IMG/VR virus record: IMGVR_UViG_3300032285_001005
Coordinates: 1-59,617 of that record
DNA from: a virus
Direction: 5' to 3' (one strand)
Length of the DNA stretch: 59,617 nt
A model generated the notes under the pieces. That model did no database searches, had not been told where the DNA came from, and worked only from the letters and a program-made list of their open reading frames with translations. Below are positions 20,859 through 23,310 of this stretch, piece after piece. Each line of letters opens with the position of its first letter. The first letter of the stretch is position 1. A program made the translations under genes and the position numbers.

Positions 20859-22190
20859 ATGAAAATTGACGCAGCAGCAAGATCACGCTTACGGTCTGCC
20901 ATTACATCTCACACAGGTTGGCAAGACTACAAAAGAGCCACAGGTAAGGGCATCGCAGACTATCAGAAAGAAGACTACTTAGCAGCATGTCACGCCCTAC
21001 AGATTGACGCACAGGGCATCGTTGACGCAGCGCAGACAGAGGGGGCAGACATGAGAAAAGAACGGACAAAAGACCGTTTCGAGGTAAATGCTTTGTATGA
21101 CCGTTTCATTGCTGTTTTAGACCGTGTTGAAACAAAAGAACGGACAAAATGCGACGACATTTTTCGCAGCATCAGGCAGCAAGGCAGTGGCATGGCGACA
21201 GATGCACAATACAACGCTATTGACCGTATCGTGACACAGGCAGAAAGCACAGAACAGAAAGCACAGACATTTGACGCAGCCCCCGCAGCGCAACCCGTGG
21301 CAGCGCCCCCCGCAGCGTCAAATGCTCTCTATGACATAATGCGCGAGGCAGTAAGGGCAGACCTTGAACCATTAGTGAAGGGCATTGTCACAAGGGCGCT
21401 TGACGGGGTAGCAACGGTCAAGATTGAGTTGCAGCAGCAGGGCGCAACAGTAGGGGCGTCTGACGGTCATCAGCACCCTATGTTCACAACGCTTTGCAGG
21501 GCGCTTTCTGCACGGCAGGTTGACAGCTTCGCCCCTAACGTCTGGATAGCAGGCCCCGCAGGTAGTGGTAAAACACATGCTGCAAAGACGTTTGCAAGCG
21601 TGGCAAAGCTTGCTTTCTGGTACAATGGGGCGCTTTCAATGCCCCATGAGTTGCTAGGGTTTATTGATGCAGCAGGGCATTATCATAGAACGCCCTTCCG
21701 TGAAGCGTTTGAACATGGGGGCGTTTACCTATTTGACGAGGTTGACGGTAGTGACAACGCAGCCCTGTTAGCCCTTAACGCAGCCCTAGCTAATGGCAGA
21801 GCAAGCTTTCCAGACGCACAGATTGAACGACACAAAGACTGTCGGATTATTGCGACAGCTAACACATGGGGGCTAGGCGCTACAGCAGACTACGTAGGGC
21901 GCAGCAAAATTGACGCAGCGTTTTTGTCACGCTTTCCAGTACGTCTGCCATGGGATTATGACGCAGCCCTTGAGGTTGCTATCTCTGGTAATGCTGATTT
22001 TGCAAGACGAGTTCAGGCAGCACGTGAGCGTGCAAGGGCAGCAGGTCTTAAGGTCTTGATTGATCCCCGCGCAACCATGGCAGGGGCAGCGTTAATCGCA
22101 GCAGGTCTGACACATGACGAGGCAGCAAGCTTAACCTATCTTGCCAACCTGTCACCTGATCAGAAAAAGCTTGTCGAGGGGCGCGCATAA
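20859..22190 (+). CDS. CobS/MoxR-like AAA+ ATPase
   Basis: 443 residues. The first ~200 are helical with a Pro/Ala linker. The AAA+ domain begins near 225: GPAGSGKTHAAK is Walker A (about 230-241), YLFDEVDG is Walker B, IIATANTWG is sensor 1, and FLSRFPVRL carries the arginine finger. The pore and MPHELLGF features resemble CobS/MoxR (AAA_5) ATPases, which remodel partner proteins, often with metal-insertion or VWA partners. No VWA protein follows. It is first in a three-gene operon whose Ala/Thr codon choice (GCA, ACA) looks different from neighbours, suggesting separate acquisition. Confidence 0.8.
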   Translation: MKIDAAARSRLRSAITSHTGWQDYKRATGKGIADYQKEDYLAACHALQIDAQGIVDAAQTEGADMRKERTKDRFEVNALYDRFIAVLDRVETKERTKCDDIFRSIRQQGSGMATDAQYNAIDRIVTQAESTEQKAQTFDAAPAAQPVAAPPAASNALYDIMREAVRADLEPLVKGIVTRALDGVATVKIELQQQGATVGASDGHQHPMFTTLCRALSARQVDSFAPNVWIAGPAGSGKTHAAKTFASVAKLAFWYNGALSMPHELLGFIDAAGHYHRTPFREAFEHGGVYLFDEVDGSDNAALLALNAALANGRASFPDAQIERHKDCRIIATANTWGLGATADYVGRSKIDAAFLSRFPVRLPWDYDAALEVAISGNADFARRVQAARERARAAGLKVLIDPRATMAGAALIAAGLTHDEAASLTYLANLSPDQKKLVEGRA

Positions 22191-22229
22191 TTGCGCCCCC
22201 AACCAACCCTAGAAAGAGAAAGAAAGACC

Positions 22230-23102
22230 ATGCAACAGATTATTCTAGACACTATTGAGACCTGCCCCGTTCAAGGTAAAGACGTGTTTCTTATAGGTGA
22301 CATGCCAAGCTTCGCTAACAGAGCAGACAGCGTGCCTGAGAACAACGACAGCAGGTCAAGTTGTCGTTCTGGTAACGATTGGACAGGTAACGTGTCTTAT
22401 TCTGATGCTGTCAAGATGACACGTGAGGGCGATTTGAAGGGCGTTGCCATGTCTGATAAATACCTGCAACGCTTCGAAGCATTGGCACCCATGCGAGGGG
22501 CGTGGCAGGTACGTGATGACGTGGCGGGGGGCGTACCTAACGTTCAAGCTTTCTTAGCAGGTACGCCCTTGACAATGCGTCGACGTGAGCGAGTTGCGCT
22601 TGAGACTGCGCCCCTTGCTGTCGCTGTTGACCTAGTGTCATCTGCTACTGTTTCAGCAGAGCATTTAAAAAAACGGGGCGCTTTAATCCTAGCCCTTGTA
22701 AGGGCGCTATCAGCAACCCGCCCTGTCGAGTTATGGGTAGGGGGCAGCGCAACCCCTATGAACAAGAGACAAGACGGGGCGTGGCATGTCTGGACACGTT
22801 TAGACACAGCGCCCCTTGACCTTGCAAGGGCAGCGCATGTGATGACCTGCCCCGCTGTTTCGCGTGGCATGATTTACGCAACCATTACCGACGAGGCAAA
22901 GGGCAGCAATGATCTGCATTGGCCCTATAGCAACCACGCATGGTCAAGGGCTAACATGCGCCCTGTATTGTCTCGCGTTATTGGTTCAGGTGACATGTTA
23001 ACCATTGCAGCGCCTCACACTAATGACGAGCTAGTTAACAACCCTGAACAATGGTTTGAGCGCATGTTAAAAGAATTCGGGGGGCTTGATCATGACGCCT
23101 AA
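22230..23102 (+). CDS. Partner protein of the AAA+ operon, unknown
   Basis: 290 residues from the ATG at 22230. The leader before it (ccctagaaagagaaagaaag) nearly repeats the leader of the AAA+ gene. Segments include DWTGNVSYSDAVKMTREGD, AFLAGTPLTMRRRERVALE and RGALILALVRALSATRPVEL. The alternating alpha/beta pattern of the middle (LAVAVDLVSS, VELWVGGSA) might suggest a Rossmann-like fold. The MIDAS motif of VWA domains is not seen, so it is not an evident CobT. It is probably a dedicated AAA+ substrate or adaptor. Confidence 0.7.
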   Translation: MQQIILDTIETCPVQGKDVFLIGDMPSFANRADSVPENNDSRSSCRSGNDWTGNVSYSDAVKMTREGDLKGVAMSDKYLQRFEALAPMRGAWQVRDDVAGGVPNVQAFLAGTPLTMRRRERVALETAPLAVAVDLVSSATVSAEHLKKRGALILALVRALSATRPVELWVGGSATPMNKRQDGAWHVWTRLDTAPLDLARAAHVMTCPAVSRGMIYATITDEAKGSNDLHWPYSNHAWSRANMRPVLSRVIGSGDMLTIAAPHTNDELVNNPEQWFERMLKEFGGLDHDA

Positions 23103-23310
23103 TCAAGCGCAAGCTTTAGGTCTGGACATAAGACCTGACGGGGCGAAAGCTTTAGTTGTTCTTTACAAGGGCGCAGCTTTCGCATGGGTAGAAAGATCAC
23201 AGCGTGACCGTCACCTATGGCGGGGCGTGACAGTATCAGGGGCGCTGTTTCACGCTAGGACTGTTTCGGAGTTAATCGATACCTTAGCAGCCAACCTGCC
23301 CCCGTCTTAA
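23092..23310 (+). CDS. Third small protein of the AAA+ operon
   Basis: 72 residues beginning MTPNQAQALGLDIRPDG and containing ALVVLYKGAAFAWVER. The ATG overlaps the upstream gene end by 11 bases. It is followed by a strong terminator, so it closes the operon. No family is recognised; it is small and mixed alpha/beta. Confidence 0.55.
   Translation: MTPNQAQALGLDIRPDGAKALVVLYKGAAFAWVERSQRDRHLWRGVTVSGALFHARTVSELIDTLAANLPPS

What the first reader, a model, noticed from the sequence alone, without database searches (positions are those of the whole stretch)
20859..23310. CobS/MoxR-like AAA+ operon inserted between the terminase subunits
A three-gene rightward operon (AAA+ ATPase, 290-aa unknown, 72-aa unknown) with its own repeat-rich upstream region, duplicated leader sequence, strong terminator and different codon flavour (heavy GCA, ACA, GAC) sits inside the leftward packaging region. 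No VWA/CobT partner is recognisable. It may be a self-contained accessory system (for example anti-defence, protein remodelling or metal-cofactor related).
Basis: partly seen in the sequence, partly recalled or inferred. Interest (0 to 1): 0.7.

Follow-up and report, generated by a model that had tools for sequence, protein, structure and literature searches.

The report
Phage AAA+ chaperone with VWA-like partner
A phage carries a two-gene protein-remodelling machine, an ATP-driven ring motor plus a partner protein, that is shared by many unrelated phages; the partner, until now only a 'domain of unknown function', is predicted to have the same fold as the adaptor proteins of known bacterial metal-insertion and Rubisco-activating motors.

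Summary
A rightward AAA+/290-aa/72-aa operon with its own palindrome-rich leader, duplicated ribosome-binding leader, terminator and deviant codon usage lies between terL and terS of a circular 59.6-kb phage record. The reading is only partly right: it does have a partner. The 290-aa protein is DUF7192/phrog_1909. Its predicted fold is a divergent VWA domain, best matched in the PDB by NorD, the VWA partner of the MoxR ATPase NorQ. The ATPase independently matches CbbQ/NorQ best by fold, and Midasin, CobS and CbbQ/NorQ by sequence profile. In 45 of 45 related IMG/VR loci and six isolated phages the ATPase is followed by DUF7192. The remaining ATPase loci are cyanophage-type and use a classical CobT-like VWA protein instead. 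So this is a phage MoxR/VWA-type remodelling pair with a degenerate metal site, not a cobalamin cassette. The pair usually sits head-to-head with the terminase genes near the genome terminus, and here it was acquired horizontally. The target is unknown. I infer an early-expressed remodeller of a host or phage complex. VWA membership rests on predicted fold only; sequence profiles do not support it.

The parts
19981..20858 (.). palindrome-rich intergenic region upstream of the operon, with an array of 20 TGACA/TGTCA sites
   Evidence: 12 hairpins vs 2.0 expected; 20 sites vs 1.6 expected; the array is not shared by relatives, but hairpin-rich gaps lie upstream of the ATPase in L010, L031, L034, L036 and L037
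20835..20855 (+). polypurine leader, copy 1 (ribosome-binding leader of the ATPase gene)
   Evidence: 20 of 21 identical to copy 2
20859..22190 (+). AAA+ ATPase, 443 aa, helix-2-insert (MoxR/CobS/NorQ/Midasin) type with a long helical N-terminus
   Evidence: PF07728, phrog_249; fold nearest CbbQ Z 21.2 and NorQ Z 20.6; profile nearest Midasin, CobS, CbbQ/NorQ; Walker A G232-T239, Walker B D293-E294, sensor-1 N335, R358, R404 conserved
22207..22227 (+). polypurine leader, copy 2 (before the second gene)
22230..23102 (+). DUF7192 protein, 290 aa, predicted VWA-like fold with degenerate MIDAS
   Evidence: PF23822 E 8e-19, phrog_1909 E 2e-31; AF2 pLDDT 86, pTM 0.84; PDB best match NorD VWA; phage VWA/CobT proteins are the next viral matches
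23092..23310 (+). 72-aa orphan protein, translationally coupled third gene
   Evidence: 11-nt overlap with the second gene; only stop-free frame, best codon score; no convincing relative
23334..23357 (+). intrinsic terminator of the operon
   Evidence: 10-bp GC-rich stem followed by T-run
17170..18633 (-). terminase large subunit (context; divergent from the operon)
   Evidence: PF17289, phrog_38
23958..24662 (-). terminase small subunit (context)
   Evidence: PF03592, phrog_51

Best explanation
The operon encodes a phage version of the MoxR-type AAA+/VWA co-chaperone machines (NorQ-NorD, CbbQ-CbbO, CobS-CobT). Shown by computation: the ATPase belongs with the helix-2-insert AAA+ proteins that work with VWA partners; the 290-aa DUF7192 protein has a predicted VWA-like fold nearest NorD; and the two genes travel together. 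Inferred: the ATPase forms a hexameric ring; one DUF7192 protein docks on it, with the conserved beta-hairpin (strands 90-97 and 116-123, conserved tip G100...P113xxM116) acting as the pore-inserting 'finger' known from NorD; ATP cycles turn or pull the adaptor and so remodel a target protein held by the VWA-like face. The MIDAS metal site is degenerate, so the target is probably not gripped through a MIDAS-bound metal as in NorD. The place near the genome terminus, and sigma-70-like promoters seen in two relatives, suggest early expression and a host or early phage target. The 72-aa protein is a lineage-specific accessory.
For: Both halves independently find the two halves of one solved complex: ATPase to CbbQ/NorQ and DUF7192 to NorD VWA, with Rea1/MDN1 MIDAS domains among the next rows. 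After other DUF7192s, the viral structure library gives phage CobT/VWA proteins (E 3e-6 and weaker). Obligate pairing: DUF7192 directly follows the ATPase in 45/45 non-cyanophage IMG/VR loci and in six genome-contig loci, and follows it in six isolate phages (other genes intervene in Bestia and RHph_X2_24). Of the 36 ATPase loci without DUF7192, at least 25 carry a DxSGSM VWA protein upstream instead. ATPase and DUF7192 divergence are correlated (Mantel r 0.56, 0 of 5000 permutations). ATPase catalytic residues are conserved. NorD's finger, not its MIDAS, engages the ring (PMC13036017, PMC9976466), which fits a conserved hairpin with a lost MIDAS.
Against: No sequence-level link of DUF7192 to VWA: hhalign against phage CobT VWA gives probability 0.2%, no Pfam VWA hit above threshold in 42 members, no relevant PDB sequence hit. 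The fold match is marginal (Foldseek best E 3.7e-3; Z 8.4 at 5.7 A rmsd). No complex was modelled. MIDAS is degenerate (first Asp in 13 of 42). Nothing here identifies the target or the time of expression.
Confidence: 0.78

Rival explanations
1. Cobalamin (metal-chelatase) helper: the pair acts as CobST and lends motor activity to a host CobN to boost B12 for nucleotide synthesis, as proposed for viral CobST by PMC8651126.
For: phrog_249 is labelled porphyrin biosynthesis; the ATPase profile matches CobS at E 4e-25; the published proposal covers the CobT-type pairs.
Against: TIGR01650 CobS score 13.6 vs cut-off 558; the ATPase is nearer Midasin by sequence profile and CbbQ/NorQ by fold; no CobN in 25 records; a ribonucleotide reductase (class not determined) in only 4 of 25 records and not in the window; DUF7192 is not CobT by sequence.
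Confidence: 0.08
2. Packaging or virion-assembly chaperone: the pair remodels terminase, portal or DNA-end complexes, which would explain the place beside terL/terS and the terminus.
For: 23 of 29 other records have TerL divergent from DUF7192; 11 of 22 records over 30 kb have it within 7 kb, chance 15% each, p 1e-4.
Against: The pair is mostly divergent from, not within, the packaging operon; it occurs in phages of very different kinds with unrelated terminases; the window's pair and TerL come from different lineages; in Bestia TerL is 61 kb away. The position may mark only the early/late boundary or the first-injected end. Records are not phylogenetically independent.
Confidence: 0.12
3. Anti-defence or host-takeover device: the pair disassembles or inactivates a host defence or regulatory complex early in infection.
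For: Sporadic, horizontally moving cassette; near the genome end in phiM5, Sephiroth, Bestia and LP-064; sigma-70-like promoter directly upstream in L089 (TTGACA-18-TATAAG) and a weaker one in phiM5 (read); PHROG category moron/host takeover.
Against: No direct evidence; PADLOC has no match, though it lists defence and not anti-defence proteins. This is compatible with the best explanation and differs from it only in the target.
Confidence: 0.25
4. DUF7192 is not a VWA domain but another Rossmann-like fold, and the pairing reflects an unrelated function.
For: Sequence profiles give nothing; Z 8.4 is near the level of common arrangements (note).
Against: All 50 listed VIA rows look like VWA, I-domain or MIDAS proteins (one or two, such as the SpaC adhesin, judged from their names), led by the partners of the ATPase's own relatives; phage VWA/CobT proteins are the next matches in the viral library.
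Confidence: 0.15

Closest known systems
NorQ-NorD (MoxR AAA+/VWA, nitric oxide reductase iron insertion)
   Same: Both subunits are the best or near-best PDB fold matches; adjacent genes; a hairpin that could be the finger
   Different: DUF7192 is shorter, lacks NorD's N-terminal domain and linker, has a degenerate MIDAS; no nitric oxide reductase operon; phage-borne
Viral CobS-CobT pairs (cyanophages, haloarchaeal viruses; PMC8651126)
   Same: Homologous ATPase (phrog_249); VWA partner encoded nearby
   Different: The partner is DUF7192 instead of CobT with DxSGSM; no sequence similarity between the partners; in the cyanophage-type loci CobT lies upstream, here DUF7192 lies downstream
Midasin/Rea1 (ribosome assembly)
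   Same: Closest sequence profile for the ATPase (E 7e-71, five matched stretches); its MIDAS domain is among the best matches of DUF7192
   Different: Single giant chain vs separate subunits; eukaryotic
CbbQ-CbbO Rubisco activase
   Same: CbbQ is the top fold match of the ATPase (Z 21.2)
   Different: No Rubisco context; CbbO keeps a MIDAS (from general knowledge)
phrog_249 + phrog_1909 / PF23822 DUF7192 gene pair (Kayvirus, Pecentumvirus, Sinorhizobium phage phiM5, Gordonia and Acinetobacter phages)
   Same: Same two families in the same order
   Different: In this window: foreign codon usage, extra 72-aa gene, TGACA array, terS on the far side

Membership tests
helix-2-insert AAA+ proteins that partner VWA domains (MoxR/CobS/NorQ/CbbQ/Midasin) | Walker A, Walker B, sensor 1, arginine finger and sensor 2 present | tested here: met
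   G232, G235, K238, T239, N335 and R404 invariant; D293, E294 and R358 at least 90% in 38 sequences
helix-2-insert AAA+ proteins that partner VWA domains (MoxR/CobS/NorQ/CbbQ/Midasin) | nearest fold and profile neighbours belong to this group | tested here: met
   CbbQ Z 21.2 and NorQ Z 20.6, next group about 16; Midasin, CobS and CbbQ/NorQ top the profile search
helix-2-insert AAA+ proteins that partner VWA domains (MoxR/CobS/NorQ/CbbQ/Midasin) | ATP-dependent hexameric ring | not testable with these tools
   needs biochemistry or a complex prediction
VWA domain co-chaperones (NorD, CobT, CbbO, ViaA) | VWA fold | tested here: met
   at the level of a predicted model only: pLDDT 86, NorD top in the PDB (Foldseek E 3.7e-3, VIA Z 8.4, 211 residues, 5.7 A), top rows VWA; marginal Z
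VWA domain co-chaperones (NorD, CobT, CbbO, ViaA) | MIDAS motif DxSxS...T...D | tested here: not met
   first position D in 13 of 42, third S or T in 12 of 42, fifth S in 26 of 42; window reads DLVSS. phiM5 (A1) and L089 (DVTSS) and L009 (DSTSS) keep a DxTxS variant
VWA domain co-chaperones (NorD, CobT, CbbO, ViaA) | detectable sequence-profile similarity to VWA families | tested here: not met
   hhalign probability 0.2%; Pfam scan of 42 members: one VWA_CoxE hit at E 0.24
VWA domain co-chaperones (NorD, CobT, CbbO, ViaA) | gene paired with a MoxR-type ATPase | tested here: met
   45 of 45 IMG/VR loci, six genome-contig loci and six isolate phages
aerobic cobaltochelatase CobNST | CobS above the curated cut-off | tested here: not met
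   TIGR01650 13.6 bits vs cut-off 558.55
aerobic cobaltochelatase CobNST | CobN subunit present | tested here: not met
   no PF02514 in 25 phage records; a host CobN is not excluded
catalogued anti-phage defence systems (PADLOC) | match to a PADLOC model | tested here: not met
   no family for any of the three proteins
PF23822 DUF7192 | score above the gathering cut-off | tested here: met
   68.4 bits vs 27

The most novel reading that the evidence does not exclude
DUF7192 founds a new class of VWA-derived adaptors that have mostly lost the metal-dependent grip, and together with their own AAA+ ring act in many unrelated phages as an early host-takeover or anti-defence disassembly machine, exchanged between phages as a cassette near the genome terminus.
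Probability: 0.3. Interest if true: 0.75.

Novelty: new variant of a known kind. Interest (0 to 1): 0.5.

Why it matters
The ATPase occurs in at least 427 of the phage records searched, including the Staphylococcus Kayviruses, and is often labelled 'porphyrin biosynthesis', while its partner carries no function at all. If the pair is a MoxR/VWA-type remodelling machine, that label is misleading, an unknown phage family gains a testable mechanism, and a natural experiment appears in which one adaptor (CobT-type VWA) was replaced by another (DUF7192) on the same motor. No paper in the searched library mentions DUF7192.

Tried and rejected
(1) Close-relative scan of viral contigs with the 290-aa protein alone: none; a two-sequence alignment gave one locus, L089. 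(2) PF11775 CobT_C in 39 records found nothing, but it also missed the clear VWA proteins of the cyanophage-type records, so it says nothing about exclusivity. (3) TGACA array as a shared operator of the family: rejected; phiM5 is TGACA-rich genome-wide and other relatives lack the array. (4) 72-aa protein: PHROGs, Pfam, neighbours of relatives and phages give no significant match; Gordonia phage Ranch gp41 at E 0.3 lies in no AAA/DUF7192 context. (5) AAA-DUF7192 fusion proteins as proof of contact: none found. (6) Profile link DUF7192 to CobT VWA: negative. (7) Fold matches of DUF7192 to uracil phosphoribosyltransferases are weaker than those to NorD. (8) The two DxSGSM ORFs near L025 and L029 look TROVE-like (my reading of the sequence) and were not counted as CobT.

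Full report
WHAT IS THERE. The window is one virus record (G000, 59,617 bases) whose two ends share an identical 123 bases, so it is probably a circular assembly. Most of the region from 0 to 20 kb reads leftward (portal, TerL, head and tail genes). At 20859-23310 three genes read rightward: a 443-aa AAA+ ATPase, a 290-aa protein and a 72-aa protein. The first two are each preceded by the same polypurine leader (20 of 21 identical). This favours ATG 22230 as the start of the second gene over the TTG at 22191. The third gene overlaps the second by 11 nt, and a strong terminator follows at 23334-23357. TerL is at 17170-18633 (-) and TerS at 23958-24662 (-), so 'between the terminase subunits' is literally true.

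FOREIGN SIGNATURE. Of the 47 genes compared, the ATPase and the 290-aa gene have the two most deviant codon usages. The tetranucleotide signature, for example CTAG 30 vs 5.4 expected and GCCC 68 vs 18 over 19981-23310 on both strands, runs from about 20.25 to 23.35 kb. TerL is 51-54% identical to the TerLs of L014, L021, L031, L034, L036 and L037. Those phages also carry an ATPase-DUF7192 pair, but the window's pair is nearer to phiM5, L009, L089 and L090 (ATPase 46-64%, DUF7192 31-41%), whose TerLs showed no match to the window's where they lie in the stretch searched. The pair was therefore probably acquired horizontally.

IDENTITY OF THE ATPASE. Pfam AAA_5 and phrog_249 'porphyrin biosynthesis' match. 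The curated CobS model does not (13.6 bits vs cut-off 558). A 38-sequence profile searched against all PDB sequences ranks Midasin first, then CobS, then CbbQ/NorQ. The AF2 model (pLDDT 84.7) matches CbbQ (Z 21.2) and NorQ (Z 20.6); the next group lies near Z 16. All four named relatives work with a VWA domain. Walker A, Walker B, sensor 1, the arginine finger and sensor 2 are conserved.

IDENTITY OF THE 290-AA PROTEIN. It is DUF7192 (PF23822, E 8e-19) and phrog_1909 (E 2e-31), both without function. I built a 42-sequence alignment from the window protein and IMG/VR loci; AF2 gave pLDDT 86 and pTM 0.84. Against the PDB the two best Foldseek rows are NorD VWA domains in NorQ-NorD complexes (E 3.7e-3 and 8.1e-3). 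VIA-align puts NorD first (Z 8.4, 211 residues, 5.7 A), and Rea1/Midasin MIDAS domains are among the next rows; the listed rows are VWA-type domains. In the viral library, after other DUF7192 proteins, come phage VWA and CobT proteins. The weakness is plain. Z 8.4 is marginal, and sequence methods show nothing: hhalign probability 0.2%, Pfam scan of all members negative, PDB profile search negative. I therefore claim 'VWA-like predicted fold, works like a VWA co-chaperone', not sequence membership of a VWA family.

THE PAIR IS THE UNIT. In 45 of 45 IMG/VR loci that are not cyanophage-type, the ATPase is followed by DUF7192, and likewise in six bacterial-genome contigs and six isolated phages of Sinorhizobium, Staphylococcus, Gordonia, Acinetobacter, Listeria and Rhizobium (in Bestia one endonuclease-like gene intervenes, and in RHph_X2_24 two small genes do). 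The other 36 ATPase loci, cyanophage-type, have no DUF7192; 25 of them show a protein with a classical DxSGSM VWA motif within the upstream flank, several of the rest being cut short. Divergence of the two proteins is correlated across 35 loci (Mantel r 0.56, 0 of 5000 permutations). One motor family with two interchangeable kinds of partner is the simplest reading.

DEGENERATE METAL SITE, CONSERVED HAIRPIN. At the MIDAS DxSxS position the first residue is D in 13, N in 14 and E in 6 of 42; the third is S or T in 12; the fifth is S in 26. The window has DLVSS; phiM5 and L089 have DVTSS. Among the most conserved positions outside the VWA core are G100, G111, P113 and M116, which sit between predicted strands 90-97 and 116-123; R212, Y216 (mostly F), R190 (K/R) and D197 are also conserved. 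In NorQ-NorD a beta-stabilised finger of NorD enters the pore of the ring, while MIDAS mutations spare ring binding but abolish target maturation (PMC13036017, PMC9976466). By analogy I infer that the hairpin is the finger and that target gripping has changed. This step is inference; no complex was modelled.

POSITION. Where TerL could be found, it is divergent from DUF7192 in 23 of 29 other records (two of these counted across the ends of a complete linear genome). In records over 30 kb, 11 of 22 have it divergent and within 7 kb (chance about 15% each, p 1e-4, not corrected for relatedness). In phiM5 the pair lies about 0.5 kb from the direct terminal repeat. The locations in Sephiroth, Bestia and LP-064 are also near a genome end. 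Directly upstream of the ATPase L089 has TTGACA-18-TATAAG, and phiM5 the weaker TTGGCA-18-TAAAAG (read). Together these suggest early transcription by host RNA polymerase; this is inferred. The upstream region is palindrome-rich here (12 hairpins vs 2.0) and in L010, L031, L034, L036 and L037. The TGACA array itself is peculiar to the window.

FUNCTION. The best-supported mechanism is an ATP-driven remodelling ring with a VWA-like adaptor. A cobalamin role, proposed in the literature for viral CobST (PMC8651126), is not supported for this variant: no CobN in 25 records, ribonucleotide reductase in 4 of 25 and not in the window, and the CobS model not met. An earlier paper called a linked gene pair in phage 0305phi8-36 a 'MoxR-type metalloprotein chaperonin' (PMC2147016), so the idea of a phage MoxR pair is not new. 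What appears new is that DUF7192 is such a partner; no paper in the searched library mentions DUF7192. Divergent VWA partners lacking one or both aspartates are known from bacterial MoxR-vWA conflict systems (PMC7159879).

VERDICT. Real, non-random and widespread; a new variant of a known kind. Confidence 0.78 in the biochemical class; the target is open.

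Noticed in passing
window 18637-18987 (-) and 19004-19495 (+): Two HNH endonuclease genes lie between TerL and the operon; they could be homing endonucleases that helped bring in the cassette.
   Followed up: partly
window 19981-20858: Array of 20 TGACA/TGTCA sites, many as palindromes, including two exact copies of GGCATGACAGTTTTTGTCAT; function unknown (operator, origin or terminus).
   Followed up: partly
window 1-123 and 59495-59617: The first and last 123 bases are identical, so the record is probably a circular assembly and the true ends of the phage DNA are unknown.
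   Followed up: no
L009 4812-5714 and 5717-6577: Two tandem, diverged DUF7192 genes follow one ATPase, as if the motor had two adaptors.
   Followed up: no
L002 1349-1546 (phiM5 gp65): An ORF inside the phiM5 ATPase gene, apparently in another frame, is annotated as detected in the particle proteome.
   Followed up: no
L048 5721-6494; L049: DUF7192 is followed by an overlapping AAA ORF that looks like a sigma-54 activator.
   Followed up: no
L025 1615-2904; L029 71-691: TROVE-like VWA ORFs (DVSGSM/DISGSM...RIDAAAALA) upstream of the ATPase.
   Followed up: no
window 23594-24052 (-): 152-aa protein matching phrog_2165, labelled DNA helicase; it overlaps TerS by 95 nt.
   Followed up: no
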